Positions 18,397-50,082 of a stretch of DNA of 64,000 bases are shown one piece after another. The position numbers were made by a program, and so were the translations under genes. This DNA comes from Phytoactinopolyspora mesophila (GTDB lineage Bacteria; Actinomycetota; Actinomycetes; Jiangellales; Jiangellaceae). The stretch covers positions 310,001 to 374,000 of the forward strand of contig NZ_WLZY01000001.1 in the NCBI RefSeq assembly GCF_010122465.1. The letters run 5' to 3'. Under the pieces are notes generated by a model. The model searched no databases, was not told the origin of the DNA, and saw only the letters and a list, made by a program, of their open reading frames with translations. Position 1 is the stretch's first letter; each line of letters starts with the position of its first letter.

Positions 18397-20643
18397 CTAC
18401 GCCGGATCGGTCTCCCAGGGGCCCCATGGGCTCGTCCCCGGTTCCTGGTTGCGTGTCCACCAGCGAGCGGTGTACCGCACGTCGTCATGGAGGACGACGT
18501 CACCGGTGTCAAACACCCGCGAAGGTGTCCACAGCGCCGTCCCATCCGGTGCCGCGGCGACCTCCTGCCACGGCCCGTGCGGATCGCCCGGCTCCTGCCC
18601 GCGCGTCCACCACGACGCCTTGAAGTCCGCACCCTGGTGGTTGACCATGTCACCGGCCACGTATACCTGCGCCGGATCCCATGCCGGCCACTCCGGTTCC
18701 AGGTCGCCGGTCCGCTCCAGTACCACGTCGTCGAACGTGCCCCAGGCGCCGCCGGACAGCGTGAACGTGGCCGCTACCGTAGCCGTGCCGTCATCCTCGA
18801 CGACGATGTCCTCGACCGTTGTTGTCCGCCACGTCCTCCAGCCGTCCAGCAGCAGATCCGCGTCGTACGTCCCGGCGGATGTCGTCGCGGTGAGCCGCCG
18901 CTCGTCGGTCTGCGGGCTGTCCCCACCCTGGGTGGTGGCTGAGAGCCGGTATGTGCCGGCCGTCAAACCCTCGATCTGCTGACTCACGGTGAACTCGTAC
19001 GGTTCGGGCGCCCAGAACTGCACCGCGCGTGTGCCGTCAGCCGCGTCGTTCGTCGTCGTGATCGCCGCGCCCGCCCCGCTGATCGTCCACATGCTCGTGT
19101 CCGAGTCCTCGAAACTCCCGTTGACCACGTAATTGACCGGCTGGACCACAACCTCCGCGGTGACCTCGATATCGGACTCGGTCAGCCCGCGCACCTCGTA
19201 CGTTCCCGGTCCGTCGATCGCGGCGACGTCGTCGTCGTTCCATGTCACGGCGTGCTGATCCACCGAGCCGTCGTTGTAGGTCACCCGCACCGTCGATGGC
19301 AGAGCGATCTCGTCGCCGTGGACGACAACCAGCTCGGGTGACTCGACACGCACAACTTCCAGCGGCGCGACGGCCCCGGTGTACACGTACCGGAAGACCT
19401 GCAGAGACTCCAGGGGATGCCCCTCGAAGTCGAACAGCGCCTGGTTCTCCCAGGCTGAACCACCGTAGTACTCGCCCGCGTCGTCCGGGTCGTACTCGGC
19501 CGCGTAGCTGGTCGCCCAGCCGGAGCCGTACGTCTCCCAGAGCACCCAGTTCTGCTCGATCTGCTCGGGCGGCCCCACCGGCAGCCACGCTGGCTCCCAG
19601 TAGTAGACGCCGAGTCCGGCGTCTCCGAGATCGTTCACGGCGGCGATGACGTCGCGCAGCGCGTCGGCCTGGCCCTGGGGGCTCACCGAATACCGGTCAT
19701 GTCCGGGATCGGAGCCGATGATGTTCCCGGTGCCGTCACCGTCCTCGAGGGTGTAGGCCCACGAGGTCTCCGTGACGATGATCTTCTTGTCGTACGTCTC
19801 CGCGACGTGTGAGAGCACGTCGGTGAGGTTTTCCAGCGTGCCGTGCCAGAACGCGTAGTACGAGCTGGCGAAGACGTCGTAGTCGACGCCGTGCTGATCG
19901 AGTTGCGCGGCGTACTCGGCGAAGGTGCCTGCGCGCTCGGGGTTGGTGAAGTGCAGTGCGACGAGCGCGTCCGGGAACACCTCTCGCACCGCGGCGCTTC
20001 CGGCCGAGAACATCCGGGCCCGGTCCGGCCAGGCGCTCACCCCGGAGACGGCGTGGTTCGTCTCGTTGCCCACCTGGACCATGCGCACGTCCACACCGGC
20101 GTCCCGGAAGTCCTCGAGCGCATCCCGGGTGAACTCGCCCAGTGCGTCGACCTTGTCGTCAACGGTCATGCCCTCCCAGGCCTTGGGCGGGAACTGCTTG
20201 CCGGGGTCTGCCCAGAAGTCGGAGTAGTGGAAGTTGACCAGGACGCTCATACCGTGGGCGGTGGCTCGCTGCCCGATCTCGACCGCCCGGGAGACGTCGA
20301 CATTGCCACCTCCGTACCCGCGGCCCTCCGAATCCCACGGATCGTTCCACACCCGGATCCGGATGTCGGTGATTCCCGCGTCGGCGAGCACAGCGAACAG
20401 ATCCGCCTCGTTGCCGGCGGTGTCGTAAAAGGTCACCCCGCTCTCCTCGAGTGAGAGCACCATCGAGATGTCGGCGCCGTGGATGAAATCCTCGGGCAGA
20501 TCCTCCACCTTCTCGACGAAGATCCCCGCCTCGACCGGTCCGTCATCGTCTGTGGCGGCTGCCGTTGGAGTGCCGAGAAGCAGTGCTCCGACCGTGGCCA
20601 GGCCGATCAGGCCACGAGCGCCAGATCGTTGATGCGATGCCAT
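18397..20643 (-). CDS. Secreted arabinogalactan endo-beta-1,4-galactanase (GH53), multimodular
   Basis: A 748-residue secreted enzyme. After a signal peptide (cleavage near TAAAT) comes a GH53 catalytic barrel at about residues 45-390. The acid/base Glu is at 194 (QVGNETN) and the nucleophile Glu at 292 (IIVTETSWAY). Next are a bacterial Ig-like domain (SPELVVVHGDEIALP), a CBM61-like beta-sandwich starting NYVVNGSFEDSDTSMW, and two short aromatic CBM5/12-like modules (ASWWTRGQEPG, ARWWTRNQEPG). It cleaves beta-1,4-galactan side chains of pectin outside the cell. It is the last gene of the galactan operon, 78 bp after the permease gene. Confidence 0.92.
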   Translation of the reverse strand: MASHQRSGARGLIGLATVGALLLGTPTAAATDDDGPVEAGIFVEKVEDLPEDFIHGADISMVLSLEESGVTFYDTAGNEADLFAVLADAGITDIRIRVWNDPWDSEGRGYGGGNVDVSRAVEIGQRATAHGMSVLVNFHYSDFWADPGKQFPPKAWEGMTVDDKVDALGEFTRDALEDFRDAGVDVRMVQVGNETNHAVSGVSAWPDRARMFSAGSAAVREVFPDALVALHFTNPERAGTFAEYAAQLDQHGVDYDVFASSYYAFWHGTLENLTDVLSHVAETYDKKIIVTETSWAYTLEDGDGTGNIIGSDPGHDRYSVSPQGQADALRDVIAAVNDLGDAGLGVYYWEPAWLPVGPPEQIEQNWVLWETYGSGWATSYAAEYDPDDAGEYYGGSAWENQALFDFEGHPLESLQVFRYVYTGAVAPLEVVRVESPELVVVHGDEIALPSTVRVTYNDGSVDQHAVTWNDDDVAAIDGPGTYEVRGLTESDIEVTAEVVVQPVNYVVNGSFEDSDTSMWTISGAGAAITTTNDAADGTRAVQFWAPEPYEFTVSQQIEGLTAGTYRLSATTQGGDSPQTDERRLTATTSAGTYDADLLLDGWRTWRTTTVEDIVVEDDGTATVAATFTLSGGAWGTFDDVVLERTGDLEPEWPAWDPAQVYVAGDMVNHQGADFKASWWTRGQEPGDPHGPWQEVAAAPDGTALWTPSRVFDTGDVVLHDDVRYTARWWTRNQEPGTSPWGPWETDPA

Positions 20644-20721
20644 AAAAGTGCCTCATTTCCTCGTGATCGAGTTCGACTGAGACGCGATCCGGTGTTCGTC
20701 GTCCTCCTTCCCAGTCACGGG

Positions 20722-21624
20722 CTAACCCTTGACCGACCCTGCGGTCAGTCCACCGACGATGTACTTCTGCAGGAACAGGAACAGCGCGAGGATCGGCAGG
20801 CTGGCGATCACCGCGCCGGCGGCGAACAACCCCCAATTCGCATTGAGCTGGTCGGAGACCCATGCGTACATGCCGACCGCGAGAGTCCAGTTGCGTTCGG
20901 AGGTGAGGATGATGCGGGCCAGGATGAAGTCGCCGAAGGGGCCGACGAACGACAGCAGCGCGACAACGGCCAGGATGGGCGTAACGAGACGCACGATGAT
21001 CGTCCAGTAGGTCTGGGCATGGGTGGCGCCGTCGATCTTGGCCGCTTCGTCGATCTCCCGCGGGATCGTGTTGAAGAACCCGTACATGAGGAACGTGTTG
21101 GTGCCGAGCGCGCCACCGAGGTACACGCAGATCAGCGCGAGCTTCGAGTTCAGGCCGAGGACGGGCACGACGTTCCCGAGCGCCAGCAGCAGCAGGAAGA
21201 TCGAGATGAACGCCAGCATCTGCGGGAACATCTGGATGATGAGCAACGCGGTCAGTCCACCGCGGCGGCCGGTGAACCGGAACCGGGAGAACGCGTAGGC
21301 GGCGGCCGCCCCCATGAGTACCGAGCCGACCGCCGTCGACCCCGCGATGATGAGCGTGTTGGCCATCCACCTCCAGAACTGGGTTTCGCCCAGGGCGGTG
21401 ACGTTCGCCGTCGAGACCGAGCGGAACAGCTCCGTTGACCCGGTCAGCGTCCCGGACGACGCGACGGCCGCTGAGAGCACGTAGGCCAGCGGAAACGCCG
21501 CGTAGAACACGAGCAGTATCGCGACCGGGTATTTCCATGCCACGTCCACCAGCCAGCGTCGCCTCCGGCCGGGTGCGGGCCGGGCAGCAACTCGAGCGGG
21601 TGCTGCCTGTGTCGTCGTGGCCAT
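20722..21624 (-). CDS. Sugar ABC importer permease, MalG/GanQ type
   Basis: A 300-residue permease of the CUT1 family with about six helices and the EAA loop EAAKIDGATHAQTYWTIIVRL. ATG 21624 overlaps the stop of the upstream permease gene (ATGA); the open frame further upstream is an artefact of that gene. Together with the MalF-like protein it forms the channel for galacto-oligosaccharides, by context with GH53 and GH42. The CUT1 ATPase is not encoded here and is probably the shared MsiK/MalK-type protein made elsewhere. Confidence 0.88.
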   Translation of the reverse strand: MATTTQAAPARVAARPAPGRRRRWLVDVAWKYPVAILLVFYAAFPLAYVLSAAVASSGTLTGSTELFRSVSTANVTALGETQFWRWMANTLIIAGSTAVGSVLMGAAAAYAFSRFRFTGRRGGLTALLIIQMFPQMLAFISIFLLLLALGNVVPVLGLNSKLALICVYLGGALGTNTFLMYGFFNTIPREIDEAAKIDGATHAQTYWTIIVRLVTPILAVVALLSFVGPFGDFILARIILTSERNWTLAVGMYAWVSDQLNANWGLFAAGAVIASLPILALFLFLQKYIVGGLTAGSVKG

Positions 21625-23264
21625 CACAGGATCTCCTCGAGTTTGCGGGTACGCCGGAACGCGAAGGCGGAGATCACACCGACGACGAGGAACACGATGA
21701 TCGACAGCGCGCTGGCCAGACCGTAGTCGGCGCGGCCACCGGCGACGCCGGAGATCTGGTAGATCATCGTGATGAGGATGTCGGTGTGCCCGAGTACGGC
21801 GGACGTGTCGGTGAAACGGGGCCTGCCTTCGGTGAGCATGTAGATGATCGTGAAGTTGTTGAAGTTGAACGCGAACGCCGCGATGATCAGCGGCGCCGTC
21901 GAGATGAGCAGCAGCGGCGGCGTGATCGTGGTCCAGGTCCGCCATCGACTGGCGCCGTCGATTCGGGCCGCCTCGAGCACGTCATTCGGCAGTGACTGCA
22001 AAGCACCGGTACAGACAAGGAACCAATAGGGGAAACTCAGCCACAGGTTCACGAGGATGATCGCGAGCTTGGCAAGCCACGGATCGCTCAACCACTCGAT
22101 CCGCGCGCCGAAGAAGAACAGGTTATTGATGATCCCGTAGTCGGGATTGGCATTGAGCATCCCGCGCCACAACAGCGCGGACAGAAACGCGGGGAAGGCA
22201 TACGGCAGGATGAACAACATCCGCATCACCTTGCGCCCGCGGATACGGGCGTCGTTGAACACCACCGCCATCCACAGGCCCATGAGGAAACTCGTCGCGA
22301 CGGTCAGGATGGCGAACGCGAAGGTCCACGCGGTGATACGCCAGAACGGCCCGGCGTAGTTGGTGTCGGTGAACCCGCGCACGAAGTTGTCGAACCCGAC
22401 GTAGACCTGCCAGCCGACGGGAAGCGCCGATCCGTCGTCAGCGACGAACCTCCCGTCGTCGCGCGCTACGTAGACGACGCCCGTCTCGGTGTCGGTGAGC
22501 GTATCGGCCTGGGGATCCCAGTCGAGCGTGGATTGATAGACGGTGCCGCGAGTGCCTTCGCGGGTGCGGATCGAGCCGTCATCGCTGTCGTCGGACACCG
22601 GCACCCGCAGGTCGAGGACCTGTTGCTGCAGGCTTTGGTCGCCCAGCAGCGTGGCCCGGTCGACCACGTCCCAGCCTGGGACGGCGGTGACGCTGTCACC
22701 ATCGACGGTTGCCTGCGGCTCGGCGGCCAGGGCGGTCTCGGCGTCTCCGACCAGCACCTGGCCGTCGGCGAGAAGCGCGAATCCGATCTCGCCGTCGCGT
22801 TGCAGGACCGTCAGTGGATATGTCTCGGCGCCTTCGACCGCGCGTTCGTTCTGGATGAGCAGGGCGTCGACGGCCTGCTCCTGGGTGCTGTTGTGGCCCG
22901 TTCCGTAGTTCGTCATGGCCACGTTGAAGGTGTAGGCCATGGTGAACAGCTGGAAGATCAGGAGGAACGCCAGACCCGGGAAAAGGTACTTGGACGGCAG
23001 CGAACGTTTGCTGAAGTACACCCAGTTGGCTGCCACGGTGAGGGCAAGTGTGCCGGCGAGAATGCCCCACGAGCCTTCGACGTAGGCGGACCACACGATC
23101 GCCAGTCCGACCGCGTTGATGGCCGCCATGATCACGAGCTTGACGACAAACCCCCAGCCGGTGCCGTGCCAGGCACGCGCGTGTGATTCGCCGGGCCGGC
23201 GCCGCGCCGGCCCAGGCGTGCCGGCACTGGACGGCGAGGACGCGAGGGGCTCGTCGGTGGGCAT
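21624..23264 (-). CDS. Sugar ABC importer permease, MalF/GanP type
   Basis: A 546-residue permease, longer than typical CUT1 permeases. The extra length is N-terminal helices plus an extracytoplasmic insert of about 180 residues, as in MalF (NYGTGHNSTQEQAVDALLI to VGWQVYVGFDNFVRGF). The EAA loop is LEAARIDGASRWRTWTTITPPLL. ATG 23264 follows AGGAGG closely; the open frame upstream of it runs through the spacer and is rejected. It pairs with the MalG-like permease. Confidence 0.88.
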   Translation of the reverse strand: MPTDEPLASSPSSAGTPGPARRRPGESHARAWHGTGWGFVVKLVIMAAINAVGLAIVWSAYVEGSWGILAGTLALTVAANWVYFSKRSLPSKYLFPGLAFLLIFQLFTMAYTFNVAMTNYGTGHNSTQEQAVDALLIQNERAVEGAETYPLTVLQRDGEIGFALLADGQVLVGDAETALAAEPQATVDGDSVTAVPGWDVVDRATLLGDQSLQQQVLDLRVPVSDDSDDGSIRTREGTRGTVYQSTLDWDPQADTLTDTETGVVYVARDDGRFVADDGSALPVGWQVYVGFDNFVRGFTDTNYAGPFWRITAWTFAFAILTVATSFLMGLWMAVVFNDARIRGRKVMRMLFILPYAFPAFLSALLWRGMLNANPDYGIINNLFFFGARIEWLSDPWLAKLAIILVNLWLSFPYWFLVCTGALQSLPNDVLEAARIDGASRWRTWTTITPPLLLISTAPLIIAAFAFNFNNFTIIYMLTEGRPRFTDTSAVLGHTDILITMIYQISGVAGGRADYGLASALSIIVFLVVGVISAFAFRRTRKLEEIL

Positions 23265-23347
23265 CGTTGCCTCCTGTCGCGGGTTGACACGGGTGGAACG
23301 GCGGGGGAGCCAGCGGGGCAGCAGCCGGCGCCCCCACCTGAAAAGGG

Positions 23348-24643
23348 TCAGCCGCCGAGGGTGGCCTCGATATCGGCCAGCATCTTCTCCCAGGCCGCCT
23401 CCGGCTCGGCCGAACCGGAGATGATCGCCGACTGCGCGGCGTTCCAGTGCTCCCAGACGTCGGCCATCTCTGGGATGGACGGCATCGGGGCGCCGTTCTG
23501 GGCCGCCGCGAGGAAACCGGCGACGACTGGGTCGTCGGCCACGTCCTGGGCCACGGCGCTCATCGCCGGGATGCGGGGGTCGGCGTCGTGCAGCGCACGC
23601 ATGGCCTCCGGCGTCGCGACGTAGTTGGTGAGGAAGTCGGCCGCCAATAGCGCGTTGTCGCTCTGCGCCGACACGAAGAAGCCCTGCACACCCACAAACG
23701 GGGCTGCGGTCTCTCCGCCAGCGGATGGAATCGGGTCGACCGTCACCTCGATGCCCGCGTCCACAAACGTTGCGATCGCCCACGGGCCTGCCACGGTGTA
23801 CGGCGCGTTGCCGTCGGCGAACTCCTGGTCCGCGATGTCGATCGTCCAGTCGGTGCTGAACAGCCCGGTCCCGCTCATGCCGTTCTCGCCGAGCCACTCG
23901 GCGAACTCGAAACCGGCGTCCCCGCCCATGCCGATGTCGTTCGTGTAGGACCCGTCCGGGTTCTGGACGAAGACCGGAGCGCCGAAGGACGTCTGGAAGG
24001 CGTAGTAGGTGTAGGCGTCCCCGGTGGTGCCGTTCGTGTTGATCACGAACGGCAGGGAGGTCCCGATCGCCTGTCCCTCGTCGATCATCTCGTCGAACGT
24101 CTCGGGGGTCGGGTCCGGCGCCAGCTCGACGTTGCGTACCAACCCGACGCTCTCGAGGGCGTACGGCAGGCCGTACAACTGACCGTCGTAGGTGAGCGCC
24201 TCAATCGCGACGTCTTCGAACTCATCGGCCGTGGCACCGAGATCGACGGAGTCCACGACGCCGTTGATGATCAGCGAGCCGAGCCAGTCGTGCGCGCCGA
24301 CCGTGATGTCCGGGCCCTCACCTGTCGGCACTTGTGCGAGGAAGTCCGCCCGGATGTCCTCGAAGTTCTTCTGGACGAGCTCGACGGTCACGCCGGTCTC
24401 GTCGGTGAACGCCTCGGCTGCCGTGGCGACCGCGGGCTCGCGGTTCTCGTCGACCCAGATGGTCAGTGAACCGGATGCAGCCGGAGCGTTGTCGGTCTCG
24501 TCGTCCGGCTCGTCATCGCCGGATTCCGCGGCGGCATCCTCGGTGGGTGCGGCCGCGGCGCCGTCCGCATCGTCTCCACCGCCGCACGCGGCCAAGAGGA
24601 CAACGGCCGCGACGGGCGCGAGCCACATCGTTGTGTTCCGCAT
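23348..24643 (-). CDS. Sugar ABC importer binding lipoprotein (MalE/GanS type)
   Basis: A 431-residue lipoprotein with signal peptide and lipobox LLAACGGG. An acidic linker follows and then the SBP_bac_1 fold (LTIWVDENREPAVATAAEAF, GPDITVGAHDWLGSLI, YTVAGPWAIATFVDAG). It captures oligosaccharide outside the membrane. By position between GH42 and permease genes its ligand should be galactan-derived oligomers. Confidence 0.9.
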   Translation of the reverse strand: MRNTTMWLAPVAAVVLLAACGGGDDADGAAAAPTEDAAAESGDDEPDDETDNAPAASGSLTIWVDENREPAVATAAEAFTDETGVTVELVQKNFEDIRADFLAQVPTGEGPDITVGAHDWLGSLIINGVVDSVDLGATADEFEDVAIEALTYDGQLYGLPYALESVGLVRNVELAPDPTPETFDEMIDEGQAIGTSLPFVINTNGTTGDAYTYYAFQTSFGAPVFVQNPDGSYTNDIGMGGDAGFEFAEWLGENGMSGTGLFSTDWTIDIADQEFADGNAPYTVAGPWAIATFVDAGIEVTVDPIPSAGGETAAPFVGVQGFFVSAQSDNALLAADFLTNYVATPEAMRALHDADPRIPAMSAVAQDVADDPVVAGFLAAAQNGAPMPSIPEMADVWEHWNAAQSAIISGSAEPEAAWEKMLADIEATLGG

Positions 24644-24759
24644 GGCATTACCTTTCTGATCGTGTGCCGCGGCGCGCGCGTCTGGAATTGCGGTGCTGCG
24701 ACCCGGTGGGTGCTGATGAACGTGAGGTGATGGACGGTTGGTGGGGTTACTCGGCGTGC

Positions 24760-26814
24760 TCAGGCGCGGTGATCACCTCGGACCCGTCGTTCCGCGGAGG
24801 TGCGCACCACGGCCACACCGCCCGCAGGGAGGCCGAGGCGCCCGGTGACTCGCTCTCCGCTGAGTAGCTCCACTCCATCGGCGAGCTGAACCTTGACGTC
24901 GTGTTCGCCATGGTTGATCGCCACGTGGTAATCCGCCTCAGGGCCGTTCCGGACCACGACCTCGACGTCGTCCGGCAGGTCGGGCCGGCGCACCCCGGCG
25001 TCCTGATACACCGCTCGCAGGACTGGTGCGAGGGCGTCGATATCCAGACGTGTCGACACGTACCAGGCGGTGCCGCCGCCGAATGCGTGCCGCGTGATCG
25101 CGGGGCTACCGGCGGCGGGACCGTCCAGGTGGCTCGCCACCACCTCGGCGCCTTCGAGCGCGAGGTCCTCCTGCGACGTATCGGCGGCGACCTCACCCGC
25201 GTCGCCGAGAACGCCGTCCGCCCAGGCGACGCGGGTCTCGGTCCCGGAACGCAGCGGCAGGAACTCATGAACGAGCAGGCCGAGCACGTCGCGCAGCGGA
25301 GCTCCGAAACCCCCGGGATGGACGGCGTCGTGTTCGTCGACGACGGCGGAGAAGAACGAGACCAACAGGGTGCCGCCGCCGGCGACATAACGGCGTAGGT
25401 TCTCCGCCGACTCCGACGTGAGCAAATACGACGCGGGGGCCACCACGAGGCGATATCGCGACAGGTCCGCCGACGGGTGGGCGAAGTCGGTGGTCACCCC
25501 GTCGCGCCATAGCCGCTCGTAATAGGCGCGAACCCGTTCGCGGTGTCGTACGTCGACAGACGGGCGCCACTCGAGGTCCTGGGCCCAGAACGACTCGGTG
25601 TCCCACAATAGGGCCACCTCGGCAGCCACGGTGGAGCCCTGGAGCTCGGCAAGGTTCGATACATCCCGGCCGAGTTCGCGGACCTCTCGCCAGATCCGTG
25701 AACCGGTGCCGGCATGGGGGAGCATCGCCGAGTGGAACTTCTCCGCGCCGCGGCGTGAGGCACGCCACTGGAAGAACGCGATCACATCGGCGCCCCGGGC
25801 CAGGTGGCCGAGGGAGTTGCGGGCCATTTCGCCCGGGCGCTTGGCGACATTGCGGGGTTGCCAGTTCACCGCCGACGTGGAGTGTTCCATCAGGATCCAC
25901 GGCCGTCCGCCGGCCACCGAGCGGGTGAGGTCAGCGGCGAGCGACAGCCCGACGTGCCCACGTTCGTCGGCGGCCGTGAGGTAGTGGTCGTTCGAGACGA
26001 TGTCGACCTCGTGCGCCCACGCCCACAGGTCGGTGGTGGGGCACTCGTTGGCCATGAAGTTCGTCGTGATGGGCTGTTGCGCGTGTTCGCGAATGGCGTC
26101 TCGCTCGGCGATGTAGCACGCCCGTAGCTGGTGGTCGGTGAACCGGGCGAAGTCGAGGCTCTGTGCGGGATTGGCCACGGACGGCGTCGCCGCCGGAGCG
26201 CCGACGTGTTCCCAATCGCCGTAGGACTGGCCCCAGAAGGCCGTGCCCCAGGCGTCGTTGAGTGCGTCGAGGGTGCGGTACCGGTCCCGGAGCCACTCGC
26301 GAAACGCGCCGACCGCCGCCTCGGAGTAGTCCTGCCCGACCGGAGCGCCGTACTCGTTGTGCACATGCCACATCACCACGGCCGGATGGTCGGCATACCT
26401 GCTGGCGAGCGCCGAGGCCACTCGCACAGCGGCGGCCCGGTAGGCGGATGAGCTGGGGGAGGCCATGCCGCGGGAACCGAACCCGAGGATGGTGCCGTCG
26501 CGGGTGACGACGCGAGCGTCCGGATAGGCGGCGAAGAACCAGGCTGGGGGAGAAGCGGTGGGGGTCGCGAGGTCAACGGCGATGCCGTGGCCGTGCAGCA
26601 GGTCGAGGAGGTCGTCGAGCCACGCGAAGTTGTACTCGCCCTCGCGTGGCTCCAGCAGGGCCCAGGAGAAGATCCCGACGCTGACGAAGTTCACCCCGGC
26701 CTCGCGCATGAGAGCGACGTCCTCGTCCCATGTCTCGCGTGGCCATTGTTCAGGGTTGTAGTCCCCGCCGTAGCCGATCCGTCGACCGGTCGGCCAAGCG
26801 CTTCTATCCGCCAT
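24760..26814 (-). CDS. Beta-galactosidase, GH42
   Basis: A 684-residue cytoplasmic enzyme with no signal peptide. The N-terminal GH42 barrel starts GYGGDYNPEQWPRETW. The acid/base Glu is at 154 (WHVHNEYG) and the nucleophile Glu at 310 (WILMEHSTSAVNW). The trimerisation and beta domains follow. It hydrolyses terminal beta-galactosyl bonds in imported galacto-oligosaccharides. ATG 26814 is preceded by GGAG and a 4-nt gap; an upstream start at 26868 would overlap the operator. It leads the galactan operon. Confidence 0.93.
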   Translation of the reverse strand: MADRSAWPTGRRIGYGGDYNPEQWPRETWDEDVALMREAGVNFVSVGIFSWALLEPREGEYNFAWLDDLLDLLHGHGIAVDLATPTASPPAWFFAAYPDARVVTRDGTILGFGSRGMASPSSSAYRAAAVRVASALASRYADHPAVVMWHVHNEYGAPVGQDYSEAAVGAFREWLRDRYRTLDALNDAWGTAFWGQSYGDWEHVGAPAATPSVANPAQSLDFARFTDHQLRACYIAERDAIREHAQQPITTNFMANECPTTDLWAWAHEVDIVSNDHYLTAADERGHVGLSLAADLTRSVAGGRPWILMEHSTSAVNWQPRNVAKRPGEMARNSLGHLARGADVIAFFQWRASRRGAEKFHSAMLPHAGTGSRIWREVRELGRDVSNLAELQGSTVAAEVALLWDTESFWAQDLEWRPSVDVRHRERVRAYYERLWRDGVTTDFAHPSADLSRYRLVVAPASYLLTSESAENLRRYVAGGGTLLVSFFSAVVDEHDAVHPGGFGAPLRDVLGLLVHEFLPLRSGTETRVAWADGVLGDAGEVAADTSQEDLALEGAEVVASHLDGPAAGSPAITRHAFGGGTAWYVSTRLDIDALAPVLRAVYQDAGVRRPDLPDDVEVVVRNGPEADYHVAINHGEHDVKVQLADGVELLSGERVTGRLGLPAGGVAVVRTSAERRVRGDHRA

Positions 26815-26836
26815 GACACTCCATTGGATCTCTTCG

Positions 26837-26854
26837 ACTGTGCACGGTCCCAGT
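26837..26854. promoter_or_regulatory. LacI-type operator candidate O1
   Basis: ACTGTGCACGGTCCCAGT has half-sites ACTGTG and CCCAGT, one mismatch from a perfect 18-bp palindrome. It lies 22 bp upstream of the GH42 start. Its 13-bp core ACTGTGCACGGTC reappears in reverse orientation in O2. Confidence 0.65.
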
Positions 26855-26923
26855 CCTGAATTTCGCAAAGTCTAGGCATTTAGTCGGCCGGGTCCACAAG
26901 AGATCGAGACACGCCGTTATTCG

Positions 26924-40754: not shown

Positions 40755-41476
40755 TGACGGCGTTCGGTGGTTTCCCGCGCGAGTTGTTCAGCTTCTTCGA
40801 CGGCCTGAGTCACGACAACTCCAGGACTTACTGGAATGCCAACAAGGCCATCTGGCAGGAGTGCGTCCGTGACCCGATGCAGGCACTGCTGGATGAGCTG
40901 GCGGCTGAGTTCGGCCCGTTGCGGATGTTCCGGCCCAACCGCGACGTGCGCTTCTCCGCGGACAAGTCTCCATACAAGCTGTGGGCGGGAGCCACGAGCG
41001 AGGCGCGTGCTGTGGGAGGCATTGGCTACTACCTCAGTGTCTCCGCGTCGCAGCTGGTCACCGGGTACGGCGCGATGGCGATGGCACCCGATCAGCTGCG
41101 GCGGTACCGTGGTGCGATCGACGACGACAGCACGGGACGCGAGTTCGAAGAACTCCTCACCACGCTTGCCGATCGCTCCCTGCCGGTAACCCCGGGCGCG
41201 CAACCGCCGCTCAAGGTTGGACCCCGTGGATATCCCGCGACACATCCCCGGTCCGAGCTGCTCCGCTGGAAAGGTGCCGCCGTGGTCCAGGAGTACAAGA
41301 AGGCCGACTGGATGTACACGCCGGTCGTGCTCGACACGATCCGAGGCGTCTGGCGCGGTGTTCAACCCCTGAAGGAGTGGCTCGACACTCGGGTCGCCGT
41401 CGACTCCGAGCCCGGCAGCAGAGCGTCGGCCGGAACCAGTAGCGGACACCGTGACGTGTCTCAGCCGGGGCGGTAG
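40751..41476 (+). CDS. DUF2461 (TIGR02453) family protein
   Basis: A 241-residue protein beginning FGGFPRELFSFFDGLSHDNSRTYW, with RMFRPNRDVRFSADKSPYK and GGIGYYLSVSASQLVTGYG, all strong marks of DUF2461. The function is unknown. It overlaps the TfoX-N gene (GTGA at 40751), so the two are co-translated. The last about 15 residues look unrelated to the family and overlap the remnant of an ABC gene on the other strand. Confidence 0.85.
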   Translation: MMTAFGGFPRELFSFFDGLSHDNSRTYWNANKAIWQECVRDPMQALLDELAAEFGPLRMFRPNRDVRFSADKSPYKLWAGATSEARAVGGIGYYLSVSASQLVTGYGAMAMAPDQLRRYRGAIDDDSTGREFEELLTTLADRSLPVTPGAQPPLKVGPRGYPATHPRSELLRWKGAAVVQEYKKADWMYTPVVLDTIRGVWRGVQPLKEWLDTRVAVDSEPGSRASAGTSSGHRDVSQPGR

Positions 41477-41640
41477 TACACGGCCAGGGGATGAGCCGGA
41501 TGGTCGATGATCTCGACCGGGGTGTCGAAGACGTCTGAGAGCACCTGCGGCGTCATGACCTCAAGTGGAGATCCGACGTACCTGATCCGGCCATCGGTCA
41601 CGGCCACGATCCGGTCGGCGTACGCCGCGGCGAACGCCGA
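41461..41640 (-). pseudogene. C-terminal remnant of a siderophore-type ABC ATPase (FecE-like)
   Basis: Sixty codons on the minus strand read SAFAAAYADRIVAVTDGRIR, then VGSPLEVMTPQVLSDVFDTPVE and a normal end LAVYYRPG with TGA at 41461. This is the usual end of Fe3+-siderophore importer ATPases after the H-loop. An in-frame TGA at 41641-41643 precedes it, and the Walker motifs are absent. The breakpoint lies 54 bp before jetA, so the gene was probably cut when the Wadjet cassette arrived. Confidence 0.7.
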
Positions 41641-41694
41641 TCACGCGCCGCGGCACCACTCGTTTCTGTCGGCGGCCTGTGATACGCATAGCGC

Positions 41695-43302
41695 GTGACG
41701 GTCGACAACCGTAAGCATGCACAGAGTGAGTCCGGAACGGACAGCCGGTTCGGCGTATTCGCACACCTGCGGTCCGAGCACAGCGACGTGTACCGGCGGA
41801 TCATGTGTGTCTTCGTCACGGCCAAGGAACGTTTCCACGTGCACCTGCGCCCGGCAGATGTGTACTCGGAGATGCTGGTCGACGGCGGCCCTGTCATCGA
41901 GCTGGACGACATCGGGCAGAAGCTTGAAAGCCTCGAAGGCTGGGGCAACGTACGCTCTGACCCGGACACCAGCCGGGTCACCGCGGTGGAGGACTTCTAT
42001 CGCAGGCGGCTGCTGTACCAGCTCACGCATGCCGGCGACGCTGCGGAGCGTGCACTGCGAACCTTTGACGAGGCATTGGGCCGGCGCGGGGCGCTGCAGG
42101 CAGTGGCGCTTGCCGACATCGAGCTTGGATTGCGTGAGCTCATCGCGCTCGCCGCGGACGATCACCCTGACCTGGGCAAGCTGCGGAACGCGCTGAACGG
42201 TCTCACGGCGCGCTTCACCGACCTGGCCGAAAACGCTAGCGCGTTCATGTCGTCGCTGCAGCGCAGCATCGACCTGCAAGGGGCCAGTGAGGAAGCGTTC
42301 GTTGCGTACAAGGACAAGCTTGTCGAGTATCTCGAACGGTTCATCCAGGACCTCGTCACCGTCGGCGCGAGCATCGCCGGCCTGATCAAGGACATCGATG
42401 GGGAACGAATCGACCACCTGCTGGGCATGGTCGCCTCGGAAGAAGCGGCAGACGAGGCGCCTGATCCCGACGACCCGCAGGCGGAACTGGCACGCAAAAA
42501 CGCCCATGAGCGGTGGCGCAACCGGTGGTATGGCCTCACGTCGTGGTTCGTCTCCGCCGACAGCCGAGACAGTCAGGCCAAGCTTCTCCGCACCCGGGCG
42601 CTCGCCGCGATACCGGCGCTGCTGGACGTGGTCCGCGAGGTCAACGACCGCAGGGCTGGGCGTTCGGACCGGTCAGCCGACTTCCTGACCCTGGCGCGCT
42701 GGTTTGCTCTCGCCCCTGCGGACGGTGACCGGCACCGGCTGTGGCACTCGGCGTTCGGTCTGGGCTCTGCCCGTCACCTCACCGTCGACCCCGACACCCT
42801 GGCCCGATGGGACGCCGACGTCGCCACCGTGGGTACGCCGTGGAGCGAGGCGCAGCCGGTGATGGTCTCGCCACAGTTGCGTAAGACAGGAAGCTACGAG
42901 CGCCGTGGCAAACCCAACCAGGTCACCGACCGCAGCGAGTACAAGGCCATGCTCGCGGCCAGTGCGGCGGAGGAAGCCGAGCAGACCGCCCGCGCCCGCC
43001 AGGCTGTACTCACCAGCGGTCCGGTGTACCTTTCCCAAATCACCGAACTTGAGCGGCCCGCGTTCCAACTGTTCCTAACCCTGCTCGGCGACGCGCTGGC
43101 GGCCCGGGTGCCGGGCCAAGAGTCGGCGGAGGTCACCGTCGGCGACGGAAGCTTGCGCATCCGGCTGCAGGCACTGCCGGATGCGCAGATTGTCGAGATT
43201 CCCAGTACCGATGGCGTGCTGCGCGGCCCGGACCACATCGTCGAGATCGTCGACGCTGCCGCCGACCCGGCACGCGCCGGTACGGAGAGTGGGGCGGCAT
43301 GA
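41695..43302 (+). CDS. jetA: Wadjet JetA (DUF2397, kleisin-like)
   Basis: A 535-residue protein of the TIGR02677/DUF2397 family. It is rich in long helices, with winged-helix-like N- and C-terminal parts, as expected for a kleisin subunit that bridges the JetC SMC dimer. The N-terminus FGVFAHLRSEHSDVYRRIMCVFVTAKERF is typical. GTG 41695 starts the operon; its stop overlaps the jetB start (ATGA). In Wadjet the JetABC complex extrudes DNA loops and the JetD nuclease cuts small circular DNA. Family calls rest on recognition of the four-gene set. Confidence 0.88.
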   Translation: MTVDNRKHAQSESGTDSRFGVFAHLRSEHSDVYRRIMCVFVTAKERFHVHLRPADVYSEMLVDGGPVIELDDIGQKLESLEGWGNVRSDPDTSRVTAVEDFYRRRLLYQLTHAGDAAERALRTFDEALGRRGALQAVALADIELGLRELIALAADDHPDLGKLRNALNGLTARFTDLAENASAFMSSLQRSIDLQGASEEAFVAYKDKLVEYLERFIQDLVTVGASIAGLIKDIDGERIDHLLGMVASEEAADEAPDPDDPQAELARKNAHERWRNRWYGLTSWFVSADSRDSQAKLLRTRALAAIPALLDVVREVNDRRAGRSDRSADFLTLARWFALAPADGDRHRLWHSAFGLGSARHLTVDPDTLARWDADVATVGTPWSEAQPVMVSPQLRKTGSYERRGKPNQVTDRSEYKAMLAASAAEEAEQTARARQAVLTSGPVYLSQITELERPAFQLFLTLLGDALAARVPGQESAEVTVGDGSLRIRLQALPDAQIVEIPSTDGVLRGPDHIVEIVDAAADPARAGTESGAA

Positions 43303-44471
43303 CCGATGGCCCCTCGGAGCAGCAGCAGCGCGCCACCCGCATCCTGCTCAAGAAGCCGTTGCTGCGTGCCGTCGAAGTCGACGCATTCCGTGCCGTACGC
43401 CCGCACGTCCCGCAGCTTCGTACGTGGTTCGAGCTCAACACCGGCTGGCGCCTGCATGCGGACTCCGACGTGATCCGCCTGCTCAAGGAGCCGTCCGCTC
43501 CGGACGACCCCACCAGGCCGGCGGTGGATCCGCGCAGCAAGGCGGCGTTCAGCCGTCGCCGCTACATCCTTTTCTGCCTGGCGCTTGCTGCGCTGGAGCG
43601 AGCCGATGCGCAGATTCCCCTCGGCCGCCTGGCCGAGCAGGTGATGCTTCTGGCACATAGCCCCGTCCTGGAAGGCAGCGGCGTAGAGTTCACCCTGGCG
43701 GGCCGGGAACAGAAAGCCGATCTCGTGGCTGCGGTCCGGCTACTGTTGGAGCTCGGCGTGCTCACGCGGGTGGCCGGAGACGAGGAAGACTACCTACGCG
43801 ACACCGGTGACGTGCTCTACGACATCTCCCGCCGGGTCCTGTCCCAACTGCTGGCATCGCGGCGCGGACCGTCCACCATCGACGCACCGACACTGGACCA
43901 GCAACTTGCCGCCTTGTCCGCGCCCGACATGTTCGACTCACATGACATGCGCAACCGGCGCATCCGGCACCGTCTGACCCGCCGCCTCCTTGACGATCCG
44001 GTGCTCTATTTCGACGAGCTGGACGAGCACGAAGCGGAGTACCTTCGGAGCCAGCGGTCCGCGATCATCCGGCGGATCAGCGAGCAGACCGGGCTGGTGG
44101 GGGAGATCCGCGGTGAAGGCATCGCCATGGTCGACCCCGACGACGACCTCACCGACGTCAAGATGCCCGACACCGGCACCGGCGGGCACGTCACCCTGCT
44201 GCTAGCCGAGGCCCTGGCGGCCGAGCCAGACCGGGTGCACTCCATGGCAGAACTGCACGAGCGAACCCGTAGACTCGTCCAGGCGCACAAGGGCTATTGG
44301 CGCAAAACCGCCCAAGAGCCAGGCGCTGAGGTCGCTCTGGCTGGCACCGCAGTGGGCCGACTGGAAGCCTTGCGGCTGGCCGAACGGCGCGAGGATGGTG
44401 TGCGTGCGCTGCCCGCCCTCGCCCGGTTCGCCGTGGCTGAGCCGGTTGTTCGCGGCGCCGGACCCAGCTAG
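43299..44471 (+). CDS. jetB: Wadjet JetB (DUF2398, KITE-like)
   Basis: A 390-residue protein of the TIGR02678/DUF2398 family. The motifs RATRILLKKPLLRAVEVDAFRAV, RRRYILFCLALAALERADAQI and a winged-helix C-terminus (GGHVTLLLAEALAAEP) fit the family. It corresponds to the KITE subunit of MukBEF-like complexes. It overlaps jetA by ATGA and ends 13 bp before jetC. Confidence 0.88.
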   Translation: MTDGPSEQQQRATRILLKKPLLRAVEVDAFRAVRPHVPQLRTWFELNTGWRLHADSDVIRLLKEPSAPDDPTRPAVDPRSKAAFSRRRYILFCLALAALERADAQIPLGRLAEQVMLLAHSPVLEGSGVEFTLAGREQKADLVAAVRLLLELGVLTRVAGDEEDYLRDTGDVLYDISRRVLSQLLASRRGPSTIDAPTLDQQLAALSAPDMFDSHDMRNRRIRHRLTRRLLDDPVLYFDELDEHEAEYLRSQRSAIIRRISEQTGLVGEIRGEGIAMVDPDDDLTDVKMPDTGTGGHVTLLLAEALAAEPDRVHSMAELHERTRRLVQAHKGYWRKTAQEPGAEVALAGTAVGRLEALRLAERREDGVRALPALARFAVAEPVVRGAGPS

Positions 44472-44484
44472 CAGGAGGTTGTCG

Positions 44485-47400
44485 ATGAGCACAGCAATCG
44501 AGCTGCCGGCGCCCTCGTCGAGCCGCTGGCAGCCGCTACGGCTCGGCTTGATCGACCTGTTCTACTACGACGACGAGGTGTTCCCGTTCGTCGACGGCCG
44601 GCTGTTGCTGCGGGGCAACAACGGCACCGGCAAGTCGAAGGTCCTGGCACTCACTCTGCCGTTCCTGCTGGACGCGGACCTGTCCGCTCGACGGGTGGAA
44701 CCTGACGCCGACCCGAACAAGCGGATGGAATGGAACCTGCTTCTCGGCGGGGCACACCCCAACCAGGAGCGGCTCGGCTACGCGTGGCTGGAGTTCGGCT
44801 GCGTCGGAGCGGACGGCAGCCCGCTGTTCTGCACCCTGGGCGCGGGGTTGAAGGCGGTCGCCGGGCGAGGCATGGTCAAGCACTGGTTCTTCGTCACCAG
44901 TCAACGCGTGGGGGACGACCTCGCCTTGCTCGACTCCACCCGCACGGCGCTGAGCCGGGAGCGGCTGAGCGAGGCGCTGGACACGCACGGGCGCATCTAC
45001 GACGCCAAGCGCGACTATCGGCGCGCCGTCGACGAGAACCTGTTCGGCCTCGGCGAGCGCCGCTACGACGCCCTGGTCGACCTGCTCGTCCAGCTTCGTC
45101 AGCCGCAGCTGTCCAAGCGGCCCAGCGAGCGTGCGCTCTCCGATGCCCTCACCGAGTCACTCCCTCCCGTCCGGGCTGACCTCATCGATTACGTCGCCGA
45201 AGGCTTTCGTGGCCTGGATGAGGAGCGCGAGCAGCTTGAGCAACTGTCCGACACCGCGCGGTCGGCAGAAGCGTTCCTGGAGCATTACCGCCGGTACGCC
45301 CAGGTGATCAGTCGGCGCCGCGCGCAGGGCCCCCGGCAAGCACAGGCCACCTTCGAACATCTCGGCCGCGAGCTGCTCCGCGCTCAGGAAGCGTTACACG
45401 AGCAGGACGAAGCGGCGACCGCCGCCGGTCAGCAGGTTGCCACGCTGCGACAGCAGCTCTTGTCACTGGAAGCGGAATGGGAGGCACTGCTCGAAGGCGA
45501 GCACGCCGAGGCCGAGGCGCAGCTAAGTGCTGCCGAGCGGGAGAAGTCGGCCGCACAAGACCGGGCACGGGACACGGCCGAGGTCCTGGAGAGCGCAACG
45601 CGTGAGCTGGTCACGGCGGACGAGGTCGTGGAAGCGGTACGGGCGGATGCCGAGTCCGCTGCCGAACAGCGCGAGACGGCGGGCGCCCAGGCAACCGAGG
45701 CTGCCGGGACGGCCGGCGTCGCCACCGAGCACGCCGGGGCCGTCGCTGACGTCGACGTCGCCGTCGATGCCGCCAAACAGGCGACCCACGACGTGGTCCA
45801 GCGACGACGGCGCGCGATAACGCGGGTGCGCGATCTGATGACTGCCGCGGAGAAGTCCGACCAGGAGCTGGCCGCGGCGCAGCGCTGGCTGGATGAGATG
45901 GCCGCGTTGCTTGACCGCCGGCTGGCCCGGCAAAACGAAGCCGACGCGGCAGCCACCCGTGCCGGCGAAGAGTTGGTCGCCCAGGTCAGATCACATTTGC
46001 AAGCGCTGGTCGAGGTGCAGATCGGCGATGTCGTGCCGGTGCTCGACGCCCTGCAGGAGTGGGGCACCACGCTTGAAGGCGCGAACCCGGCTGCGGCTGC
46101 GCTGGCCGAGGCGGCACAACGAGTACGTGACGAGATCGCCGAGACGCGTGCCCGCGGGAGGGCGCGTGACGGCGAGCTCGAGGCGCACGCGGACGAGCTC
46201 GAGCAGGAGATCGCCGACCTGGAGCAGGGTCGATCCCAGCCGCCACCGGCCCGGCACACACGGAACGACGACATGCCCGGGGTCCCGCTGTGGCGCTCGA
46301 TCGACTTCGCCGAGACGACCAGCCCGGGGGAGCGGGCGGGATTCGAAGCGGCCCTCGAGGCGGCTGGGTTGCTCGACGCGCACATCCTGCCTGGTGGCGA
46401 GGTGCGCTCACCCGCCGACGGTGAGCTCCTCCTCGAACCACGCCCGGTGGACGGAGCCTCAGACGACGCGTCGGCTCCCCAGCCGGTCACTTTGGCCGGC
46501 GTGCTGCGCCCGGAGCTCCCGCCCGACGCCGCCGGCGTGCGAGTGAGCGATGTCAACGCCGTGCTGCGCAGCGTCGGCGTACGTCCGGCCTCCGGCGGCT
46601 CACGCAGGGTGGCCGACGAGGCGCCAGCCTGGGTGTCGGCGGACGGGCGGTTCCAGCTCGGCGTCGTCACGGGGGCGTGGTCCAAAACGGAGGCGTCGTA
46701 CATCGGTGAGGGGGCCCGCGAGGCCGCGCGGCAACGGCGGATGGCCGAGGCCCGGGCCGAGCTGGAGGCTGTCCGGATCGAGCGTGCCGAGGTGGCCCGG
46801 CTGCTGGACCAGCTCGAGGAGCGAGCACGCCGGGTGCAGCGGGAGGTCGACGAGCTGCCCAGCGACTCCGCGCTGCGGGACTCGTACGCCGATGTGAAGT
46901 CCGCACACGATGGCGTGGTCGAGGCAACCGGTCAACGCGATGGGGCCGTGGCGGCCGTCGACGAAGCACGAGCGAAGGCGCAGCGCGACGCCGCGGAACT
47001 CGCAGAGACAGCGGCCACGCTGGACCTGCCCACGACCCGTGCGGACCTCGAGGAGGTGAGCTCCGCCGTCAACACCTACGCGGCGGCCCTGGCCAGCTTG
47101 TGGCACGCGGTCGACGTGGCAGCGCGGGAGGCCCGGCGGCTGGCTGCGGCTGAGACCACCCGCCTCGAGACGGCGAAACGGCATGCCAGCGCCGGGCAAC
47201 GCAAGCAGCGCAGCGACGACGAGCTGGCCGCGGCTGAGACGCGGTATCAGACGCTGGAGAGCACTGTCGGCGCCGACGTCCGTGAATTCCAGCAACGCAG
47301 GTTGACGGTGAAGCGGAACAAGCAAGAGACCGAAGCGCAGCTGGAGAGTGCGCGTGAGCACCTCACACAGGTGCGGGAGAAGTTGGCCACCATGCGAGAG

Positions 47401-48600
47401 CAGGAGCGCCAGCTCTCCGAACAGCAGCACGATGCCGACAACGATCGAAGCCAGGCCATAGCGGCGCTGCGCCGCACCACGAGCCGGGGCGTGCTCGGAG
47501 TTGCGTGTCCCACGTTGACGGTGCCTGACCCCGACGAGGAATGGAGCATCGCCCAGGCCGTCGCGCTCGCGCGGACCGTCGAGCAGGAGCTGTCCGAGAT
47601 CGAGGCCGACGACGCAGCGTACGAGCGTGTGTATGCACGGCTGGGGCCGGAGGTCACCGCGTTGCAGACGGCGCTGAGCCGGCACGGGCACAGCGCGGTC
47701 GGCGATCCGAACGACGACGGCTACACCGTGTCGGTCTTGTTCGGTGGCCGCCAGGTGCCCGTGCCTGAGCTCGTCGTCATGCTCCGGGAGGACATTGAGG
47801 CGCGGGAACGCCTCCTCGGGGCTCGAGAGCGTGAGATCATCGAGAACCATTTGGTCACTGAGGTCGGTGCGAACCTTGCGGACCTGGTCGCCGAAGCCGA
47901 GGCCCAGGTTCGTGCCCTAAATGAGGAGCTTTCGGAGCGCCCGACATCTACCGGGATGAAGCTGCGTGTCGTCTGGCGGCTCCGCCGGGACGGCCCGGCC
48001 GGCTTGCCCGAGGCGCGCCGTCGTCTGTTGCAGCTCGCGGATGCGTGGAGTGCGGAGGACCGTCGCGAGATCGGCGGGTTCTTGCAGGCGCAGATCAACG
48101 ACGAGCGCGACCACGACGAGACAGGCACCTGGCATGAACATCTGGAACGCGCCCTCGACTACCGCTCGTGGCACGAGTTCACCGTCGAGCGCTACCAGAA
48201 CGGGGCATGGCGCTCTGCCTCCGGCCCCGCATCCGGCGGAGAGCGGGTCCTGGCTGCGAGCATTCCGCTGTTCGCGGCCGCGTCGTCGCACTACCGGACG
48301 GCAACCAAGCCACACGCTGCGCGGCTGGTCACGCTGGACGAGGCATTCGCCGGGGTCGACGACGACTCGCGTGCCAAGTCGCTCGGCCTGCTTCGTGCTT
48401 TCGACCTGGACGTGGTGATGACCAGCGAGCGCGAGTGGGGCTGTTACCCAGAGGTCCCGGGCCTGTCGATCGCACAGCTGTCCCGGGTTGAGGGCATCCC
48501 AGCGGTGCTGGTTACCTTGTGGGAGTGGGACGGCCTGACCCGTACGAGGGTAGAACGTGATAGCGATCCCGAACCTGCCGCCGGGAGTCTGTGGACGTGA
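44485..48600 (+). CDS. jetC: Wadjet JetC (SMC/MukB-like ATPase)
   Basis: A 1371-residue SMC-type protein of the TIGR02680 family. Walker A GNNGTGKS is at residues 44-51. Two long coiled-coil arms rich in Glu, Ala and Arg flank a hinge-like globular part in the middle. The ABC signature SGGER begins near residue 1250 and Walker B LVTLDEAFAGVD near 1281. All ATPase motifs are intact. It is the DNA-loop-extruding motor. ATG 44485 is preceded by AGGAGG with a 6-nt gap; an upstream in-frame start at 44395 lies within jetB and is rejected. Confidence 0.93.
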   Translation: MSTAIELPAPSSSRWQPLRLGLIDLFYYDDEVFPFVDGRLLLRGNNGTGKSKVLALTLPFLLDADLSARRVEPDADPNKRMEWNLLLGGAHPNQERLGYAWLEFGCVGADGSPLFCTLGAGLKAVAGRGMVKHWFFVTSQRVGDDLALLDSTRTALSRERLSEALDTHGRIYDAKRDYRRAVDENLFGLGERRYDALVDLLVQLRQPQLSKRPSERALSDALTESLPPVRADLIDYVAEGFRGLDEEREQLEQLSDTARSAEAFLEHYRRYAQVISRRRAQGPRQAQATFEHLGRELLRAQEALHEQDEAATAAGQQVATLRQQLLSLEAEWEALLEGEHAEAEAQLSAAEREKSAAQDRARDTAEVLESATRELVTADEVVEAVRADAESAAEQRETAGAQATEAAGTAGVATEHAGAVADVDVAVDAAKQATHDVVQRRRRAITRVRDLMTAAEKSDQELAAAQRWLDEMAALLDRRLARQNEADAAATRAGEELVAQVRSHLQALVEVQIGDVVPVLDALQEWGTTLEGANPAAAALAEAAQRVRDEIAETRARGRARDGELEAHADELEQEIADLEQGRSQPPPARHTRNDDMPGVPLWRSIDFAETTSPGERAGFEAALEAAGLLDAHILPGGEVRSPADGELLLEPRPVDGASDDASAPQPVTLAGVLRPELPPDAAGVRVSDVNAVLRSVGVRPASGGSRRVADEAPAWVSADGRFQLGVVTGAWSKTEASYIGEGAREAARQRRMAEARAELEAVRIERAEVARLLDQLEERARRVQREVDELPSDSALRDSYADVKSAHDGVVEATGQRDGAVAAVDEARAKAQRDAAELAETAATLDLPTTRADLEEVSSAVNTYAAALASLWHAVDVAAREARRLAAAETTRLETAKRHASAGQRKQRSDDELAAAETRYQTLESTVGADVREFQQRRLTVKRNKQETEAQLESAREHLTQVREKLATMREQERQLSEQQHDADNDRSQAIAALRRTTSRGVLGVACPTLTVPDPDEEWSIAQAVALARTVEQELSEIEADDAAYERVYARLGPEVTALQTALSRHGHSAVGDPNDDGYTVSVLFGGRQVPVPELVVMLREDIEARERLLGAREREIIENHLVTEVGANLADLVAEAEAQVRALNEELSERPTSTGMKLRVVWRLRRDGPAGLPEARRRLLQLADAWSAEDRREIGGFLQAQINDERDHDETGTWHEHLERALDYRSWHEFTVERYQNGAWRSASGPASGGERVLAASIPLFAAASSHYRTATKPHAARLVTLDEAFAGVDDDSRAKSLGLLRAFDLDVVMTSEREWGCYPEVPGLSIAQLSRVEGIPAVLVTLWEWDGLTRTRVERDSDPEPAAGSLWT

Positions 48601-48645
48601 TCTCGAGATCAGACAGCAGGACACAGGCCACGGCGCTGTTTGGTC

Positions 48646-50082
48646 ATGGTGCCGAGTACCCGGAAATACAGCCTGTGGGATGCGATGACGACCGGTGATC
48701 TCGAACGGCTGCGGCGACTACTCGGTGTGCCCGAGACGGAATGGATCGTTGACCGGGCGCGAACTCGTCTGGCCAAGGGTACGGCGCTGGATGGCAGCAT
48801 CACGCTGTCGCGCGCATCCGATCCGCAGCGTGCCGCCGCCGGTCGGCTCCTCGGCCGCTCGGTGGGCCAGGGCCGCTCGGTGACTGTGTCTCTAGGTCAG
48901 CTGGACCAGGTCCTGCGTACATCGGGCGCCTGGCCGGAAGGGCTCGCGGCGGCCGTGGTTGCGTTGAAGGGCCCGGTCGATGATCCCGCTGAACGGCAGG
49001 CGCTGCGCGACGCTTGGCGCGCGGTGGACTACCGGCTGGTCGAGCTTGCCGCCGAGCGGCTCGAGCTGAAGGAGTGGGTTCAACGTGTGCGTTCTCGTGG
49101 CCATCTCAAACGCATCGCAGGCAACGCCGAGGACGCGTTGGCGCTGGTGGATGACCTCACGGCGGTAGTGCGGGCGCTGCCAACCGAGGGCGAGTCATTA
49201 GCCGGCTTCGCCGCCCGTGTCTTGCATCGGGCTCACGCGCTCGACGCCGGCACCGCGCTGGGAAACCTGGCCGCCGACGCGGCGGGCGTGATCGGTACCA
49301 GTGCGTGGGCGGGTGAGACTGGTGAGCCGGTGTTGTTCGAGTCGGAACTCTTCGGAATCGTCACCCACAGTCCGGTCGACAGCAGGTTGGAGTCGTCGGT
49401 TCCCGTGACGACTGCCGCTGCCGCAGCGGGAAAATCAGGCGTTCGACGCGGTACGGCAGCGTGGCGAAGATACGCGTGGGCATCGGTGGGCGTGCTCGTC
49501 GACGACTTGTCGTCGTCGGTGCTCACGCTTGGTCTGCCGGGTGGAACGTCCTCTCCCACGGCGTATGCGCTCGCGCAGCTGTCTGGGGCTGGCCAACCTG
49601 TCGTCCTGACTCTTCGTCAGGTGATGGCCGATGATCCCGGTGTCATCCCGTCTGTGGTCTATGTATGTGAGAATCCCGCTGTCGTGTCGGCCGCCGCCGA
49701 CCAGCTGGGTTCGGCGTCGTCGCCGGTCGTGTGCGTCGGTGGACAGCCCGGCTCCGCGGCCGTTGCTCTCCTGAATCAATTGGGAGAATGCGGAGCCGCG
49801 TTGCGCTATCACGGTGACTTCGACTGGGGCGGGATCAGTATCGCTCGCACAATGACGTCGCAGGTGGGGTGGGAGCCGTGGCGATTTCGTGCTGCCGACT
49901 ACATGAGCGCACTGGAAGGGATCGAGCGCACCGGTTGTCGCCTGGAGAAGCTGGCGGAGCCCCACGGAGGGGTACCTGGCACGCCGTGGGACCCTGAACT
50001 ATCGACGACGATGGCCCACCATGGTCTTCGCATCGAGGAAGAATTCGTGCTCGACGACCTGCTCCGTGACCTGGCCGACTGA
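48646..50082 (+). CDS. jetD: Wadjet JetD (DUF3323/DUF2399, Toprim nuclease)
   Basis: A 478-residue protein of the TIGR02679 family. The N-terminal domain (LRRLLGVPETEWIVDRARTRL) matches DUF3323. The C-terminal part is a Toprim-like nuclease with the catalytic Glu in VYVCENPAVV and the DxD pair in YHGDFDWGGISIA. In Wadjet it cuts plasmid DNA bent by the stalled SMC motor. The start is uncertain: ATG 48646 or 48685, with no strong ribosome site. It is 45 bp after jetC and ends the operon. Confidence 0.9.
   Translation: MVPSTRKYSLWDAMTTGDLERLRRLLGVPETEWIVDRARTRLAKGTALDGSITLSRASDPQRAAAGRLLGRSVGQGRSVTVSLGQLDQVLRTSGAWPEGLAAAVVALKGPVDDPAERQALRDAWRAVDYRLVELAAERLELKEWVQRVRSRGHLKRIAGNAEDALALVDDLTAVVRALPTEGESLAGFAARVLHRAHALDAGTALGNLAADAAGVIGTSAWAGETGEPVLFESELFGIVTHSPVDSRLESSVPVTTAAAAAGKSGVRRGTAAWRRYAWASVGVLVDDLSSSVLTLGLPGGTSSPTAYALAQLSGAGQPVVLTLRQVMADDPGVIPSVVYVCENPAVVSAAADQLGSASSPVVCVGGQPGSAAVALLNQLGECGAALRYHGDFDWGGISIARTMTSQVGWEPWRFRAADYMSALEGIERTGCRLEKLAEPHGGVPGTPWDPELSTTMAHHGLRIEEEFVLDDLLRDLAD

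What the first reader, a model, noticed from the sequence alone, without database searches (positions are those of the whole stretch)
41695..50082. Complete four-gene Wadjet (jetABCD) anti-plasmid system
DUF2397, DUF2398, an SMC-like ATPase with intact Walker A (GNNGTGKS), signature (SGGER) and Walker B, and a DUF2399/Toprim protein with DFDWGG lie in order with ATGA or short-gap junctions. This matches the set I know as type II Wadjet, which cleaves small circular DNA. It is the most coherent defence locus in the window and looks functional. The type number is from memory.
Basis: partly seen in the sequence, partly recalled or inferred. Interest (0 to 1): 0.72.

Follow-up and report, generated by a model that had tools for sequence, protein, structure and literature searches.

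The report
Ordinary type II Wadjet plasmid-defence operon
This is a complete, intact-looking copy of a known bacterial defence system (type II Wadjet) that is thought to reel in and cut small circular DNA such as plasmids; it is a new member of a known kind, patchily gained and lost among its relatives.

Summary
Window 41695-50082 (+) carries four co-directional genes whose best matches by far are JetA2, JetB2, JetC2 and JetD2 (PADLOC). They exceed the cut-offs of TIGR02677/02678/02680/02679 and of the expected Pfam families, and keep the near-invariant ATPase (JetC) and Toprim (JetD) residues of 73-82 homologues. JetA, B and C match the solved type II complex (PDB 9qe0) by sequence; the AlphaFold model of JetD best matches the solved type I nuclease MksG and topoisomerase VI-A. 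'Type II Wadjet, looks functional' is supported, though activity was not tested. Corrections: jetC starts at 44485 behind an AGGAGG; jetD most likely at 48685. Additions: a 44-residue, predicted-disordered JetD insert; a TGTGATAC element before jetA shared with the nearest relative; a truncated ABC-ATPase gene 57 bp before jetA, marking a recombination edge. The operon groups with Haloactinopolyspora alba and a Deinococcota MAG, apart from three other copies in the family. Five of 22 held genomes of the order have full-length jetA; two keep only fragments. Ordinary, low interest.

The parts
41695..43302 (+). jetA (kleisin-like subunit, DUF2397/TIGR02677), 535 aa, GTG start
   Evidence: PADLOC JetA2 E 6.8e-185; TIGR02677 510 bits, cut-off 166; JetA chain 9qe0_E, profile E 1.8e-44
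43299..44471 (+). jetB (KITE-like subunit, DUF2398/TIGR02678), 390 aa, ATGA overlap with jetA
   Evidence: PADLOC JetB2 E 5.4e-131; TIGR02678 333 bits, cut-off 125; JetB chain 9qe0_D, profile E 1e-5
44485..48600 (+). jetC (SMC-like ATPase, TIGR02680), 1371 aa; Walker A 44614-44637, signature SGGER 48232-48246, Walker B from 48325
   Evidence: PADLOC JetC2 1368 bits against JetC1 53 bits; TIGR02680 1157 bits, cut-off 463; JetC chain 9qe0_A E 7e-81; motifs; AGGAGG ahead of the start
48685..50082 (+). jetD (Toprim nuclease subunit, DUF3323+DUF2399/TIGR02679); listed frame opens at TTG 48640, ATG 48685 preferred
   Evidence: PADLOC JetD2 E 2e-119; TIGR02679 283 bits, cut-off 196; AlphaFold model pLDDT 88.8 matches MksG nuclease 8b7f and topo VI-A 1d3y; start context shared with H. 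alba
49663..49677 (+). Toprim glutamate motif VCENP in JetD
   Evidence: near-invariant in 82 sequences; position
49810..49833 (+). Toprim acidic motif HGDFDWGG in JetD
   Evidence: near-invariant in 82 sequences; position
50032..50043 (+). C-terminal IEEE of JetD; two of the glutamates near-invariant, possible counterpart of the catalytic glutamates proposed for JetD/MksG
   Evidence: E467 and E468 near-invariant; proposal for type I in PMC10123090; the correspondence is inferred
49306..49437 (+). 44-residue insert in JetD before the Toprim part, absent from most relatives, predicted disordered
   Evidence: alignment of JetD homologues; pLDDT below 50 at model residues 213-250
41678..41685 (+). 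TGTGATAC, extended -10-like element 9 nt before the jetA start; suggests a leaderless transcript
   Evidence: same 8-mer 10 nt before the jetA ATG of Haloactinopolyspora alba L002; disrupted in the decayed G002 locus; promoter role inferred
41470..41637 (-). last 56 residues of an iron/siderophore-type ABC ATPase gene, truncated; left recombination edge of the operon
   Evidence: 88% identical to the C-terminus of an intact gene in congener G004; the other listed matches in the own genome are at most 46% identical

Best explanation
A complete chromosomal type II Wadjet operon. JetC dimerises and, with JetA (kleisin) and JetB (KITE), forms a two-motor SMC complex that loads on DNA and extrudes loops using ATP. 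On a small circular molecule the two motors run into each other once the whole circle is reeled in; the stalled complex presents bent DNA to a JetD dimer, whose Toprim site cuts both strands. Small plasmids are lost, while the large chromosome is spared because extrusion is not completed. Shown here: family membership, intact near-invariant motifs, operon structure, homology to the solved type II complex, JetD fold. Inferred from studied homologues: loop extrusion, cleavage, size sensing, expression in this host.
For: Type II models win for all four proteins; TIGR02677-02680 above curated cut-offs; expected Pfam families; JetA/B/C match PDB 9qe0, and the type II complex nvJET cleaves circular DNA (PMC12647877); JetD model matches the type I nuclease MksG 8b7f and topo VI-A 1d3y; near-invariant residues kept; same gene order in relatives; mechanism reviewed in PMC10586767; deletion of a native jetABCD raised conjugation by about five orders of magnitude in Clostridium cellulovorans (PMC12287153; Wadjet type of that system not checked here).
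Against: No activity data for this locus. JetD, the cutting subunit, is its most diverged part (55% identity to the nearest relative against 62-75% for A, B, C) and carries an unusual insert. The sequence profile of JetD finds no related solved structure, and the fold match has a low whole-chain TM-score (0.35), as expected if the domains are placed differently. Expression in this host is unproven.
Confidence: 0.93

Rival explanations
1. An intact-looking but silent or defective type II Wadjet locus: not expressed, or JetD impaired by its insert, on the way to the decay seen in relatives.
For: A decayed remnant exists in congener G002 and a jetD fragment in G013; JetD is the most diverged subunit and has an extra 44 residues; a recombination edge lies 57 bp from the jetA start.
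Against: No frameshift or stop in 8.4 kb; near-invariant residues kept; the insert lies in a poorly conserved, predicted-disordered stretch and a Trueperaceae homologue has a shorter extension there; promoter-like element shared with H. alba.
Confidence: 0.1
2. A condensin-like chromosome organiser (MukBEF/MksBEF-like) rather than a defence system.
For: JetABC subunits resemble MukBEF, and an MksBEF complex without JetD acts in chromosome organisation (PMC10586767).
Against: A nuclease gene of the type II JetD family is part of the operon and keeps its near-invariant residues; the distribution is patchy, five full-length jetA among 22 genomes of the order, unlike a housekeeping condensin.
Confidence: 0.03

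Closest known systems
Type II Wadjet of Neobacillus vireti LMG 21834 (nvJET; PDB 9qe0/9qe1 by my reading)
   Same: JetA, JetB, JetC homologous by sequence; same four-subunit set; JetC is 1371 residues in both
   Different: JetB match is weak and partial (E 1e-5); no solved JetD was found by sequence profile; different phylum
   Same: Same gene order; JetA 75, B 69, C 62, D 55% identity; TGTGATAC element before jetA and jetD start context
   Different: No 44-residue JetD insert; only the operon itself aligns with the window, so it lies at a different site
MksG/JetD of type I Wadjet (C. glutamicum MksBEFG, PDB 8b7f)
   Same: Fold of JetD: N-terminal domain plus Toprim
   Different: Type I; no sequence-level match; JetC2 far outscores JetC1 for the partner ATPase

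Membership tests
Wadjet type II | JetA of the DUF2397 family | tested here: met
   JetA2 E 6.8e-185; PF09660; TIGR02677
Wadjet type II | JetB of the DUF2398 family | tested here: met
   JetB2 E 5.4e-131; PF09661; TIGR02678
Wadjet type II | JetC, SMC-like ATPase of the type II subfamily, with intact Walker A, signature and Walker B | tested here: met
   JetC2 1368 bits, JetC1 53 bits; motifs; conservation over 73 sequences
Wadjet type II | JetD with DUF3323 and DUF2399/Toprim and intact acidic residues | tested here: met
   JetD2 E 2e-119; both Pfam domains; E344, D393, D395, E467, E468 near-invariant; fold
Wadjet type II | Four genes together in the order A-B-C-D | tested here: met
   same order in relatives
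Wadjet type II | Restriction of small circular DNA | not testable with these tools
   needs transformation or in vitro cleavage
Wadjet type I or III | Best match to type I or III models | tested here: not met
   JetC1 53 bits, JetD3 17 bits, no type I or III JetA or JetB listed

The most novel reading that the evidence does not exclude
The disordered insert in the nuclease subunit (present in shorter form in the related Trueperaceae copy) is a regulatory tether that changes how this branch of type II Wadjet activates JetD, giving a different size threshold or control from nvJET.
Probability: 0.05. Interest if true: 0.35.

Novelty: new member of a known kind. Interest (0 to 1): 0.14.

Why it matters
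It adds a well-preserved actinobacterial example of a defence system whose structure and mechanism are already known. Practical use: a host carrying it may resist transformation with small plasmids, which matters for anyone trying to engineer it. The decayed remnant in a congener and the patchy distribution fit the usual gain-and-loss pattern of defence genes.

Tried and rejected
Single-sequence and profile searches of JetD against solved-structure sequences gave nothing useful (the weak cellobiohydrolase matches are chance). No shared word of 9 or more bases between the two edges of the operon was found, so no target-site duplication supports a simple insertion. Congener G004 was examined as a possible empty site: the ABC-ATPase, acetyltransferase and cupin genes that flank the window operon lie on one contig there, but in another order and spacing, so it is not a clean empty site. 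Among listed own-genome matches to the ABC ATPase only the 56-residue remnant is closely related (list truncated). A papers search for DUF2397 with DUF2398 found none.

Full report
Check of the observation. The region 41695-50082 on the + strand holds four open frames without internal stops. Profile searches give, in order, JetA2, JetB2, JetC2 and JetD2 of PADLOC as best matches (E 6.8e-185, 5.4e-131, 0 and 2e-119), the Pfam families DUF2397, DUF2398, SbcC_Walker_B, and DUF3323 plus DUF2399, and TIGR02677, TIGR02678, TIGR02680 and TIGR02679, all above their curated cut-offs. Type I and III models score far lower (JetC1 53 bits against JetC2 1368; JetD3 17 against JetD2 398).

Gene starts. jetA and jetB overlap as ATGA. 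The listed frame of jetC opens inside jetB, but ATG 44485 follows an AGGAGG at normal spacing and is the better start. For jetD the listed frame opens at TTG 48640; ATG 48685 sits in the same sequence context (TGTGGGAT, then ATGAC) as the start in Haloactinopolyspora alba and is preferred. The jetA start GTG 41695 is supported by TGTGATAC nine bases upstream, which recurs ten bases before the jetA ATG of H. alba and is disrupted in the decayed copy of G002. A promoter and a leaderless transcript are inferences.

Integrity. In an alignment of 73 JetC sequences the residues of GNNGTGKS, SGGER and the Walker B segment are near-invariant and present in the window; in 82 JetD sequences the same holds for CENP, HGDFDWGG and two glutamates near the C-terminus. 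The window departs from columns conserved at 95% or more at 13 positions in JetC, 2 in JetD, 7 in JetA and 6 in JetB, none of them in these motifs.

Structure. JetC, JetA and JetB match chains of PDB 9qe0 named JetC, JetA and JetB (E 7e-81, 1.8e-44 and 1e-5). That 9qe0 is the Neobacillus vireti type II complex is my reading from the molecule names and the structure paper cited in PMC12647877; the tool did not print the organism. That the N. vireti complex is type II and cleaves circular DNA is from PMC12647877. The AlphaFold model of JetD (mean pLDDT 88.8) has as best solved match the C. glutamicum nuclease 8b7f, then topoisomerase VI-A 1d3y, in line with the Toprim nuclease fold described for type I (PMC10123090). 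Whole-chain TM-scores are low (0.35 for the best), so the match speaks for the fold of the parts, not for one rigid arrangement.

JetD insert. Residues 223-266 of the listed frame are gaps in most relatives; the model gives pLDDT below 50 across most of this stretch. A Trueperaceae homologue has a shorter extension at the same place. It is most likely a variable linker.

Relatives. A genome-contig scan found 242 stretches encoding relatives of JetD; the best 80 are mostly Actinomycetota. In a tree of JetA+B+C from 66 loci the window groups with H. alba and a Trueperaceae (Deinococcota) MAG with SH-aLRT 100, while the copies of three other genomes of the family (G010, G017, G018) fall in a different clade (quick method, midpoint root). 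This points to separate acquisitions. H. alba is Jiangellaceae and its contig length equals that of G005 C2, so the window most likely comes from that family; the genus was not determined. Of 22 genomes of the order, five including this one have a full-length DUF2397 gene. The congener G002 keeps only jetA residues 18-168 followed by two JetD pieces in different frames, without the DFDWGG stretch; G013 keeps a 43-position match to the DUF2399 end, not examined further.

Neighbourhood. Left of jetA lie a TfoX_N-domain gene and a DUF2461 gene, then the truncated C-terminus of an ABC ATPase on the - strand, ending at 41637, 57 bp before jetA. Right of jetD are a GNAT acetyltransferase and a methyltransferase gene. 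In congener G004 the ABC ATPase is intact and lies 14 kb from the GNAT gene, in the other order. The operon therefore sits at a recombined site, but no target duplication was identified: the edges share no word of nine or more bases. Mobile-element genes were not searched for across the window. The GC content of the operon (68.3%) is close to that of the window (66.5%).

Mechanism and verdict. The best explanation is a working type II Wadjet, by the total-extrusion model reviewed in PMC10586767. Membership is shown by sequence; function is inferred. It is a new member of a known kind and of low interest.

Noticed in passing
window 41470-41637 (-): Truncated C-terminus of an ABC ATPase gene; the intact gene exists in a congener (G004 C23, L090).
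   Followed up: partly
L082 / G002:C10:188949-189770: Decayed jetABCD in a congener: start of jetA joined to two out-of-frame pieces of jetD.
   Followed up: partly
window 16683-17990 (+): Ice-binding-like domain protein (PF11999, E 1.7e-63).
   Followed up: no
window 56-1663 (+): DUF222 plus HNH endonuclease domain protein.
   Followed up: no
window 5096-8598 (+): DNA photolyase gene followed by an MMPL-family gene, the listed frames overlapping.
   Followed up: no
window 18397-26868 (-): Glycosyl hydrolase family 53 and family 42 genes around an ABC permease gene; looks like a galactan or galactoside utilisation cluster.
   Followed up: no
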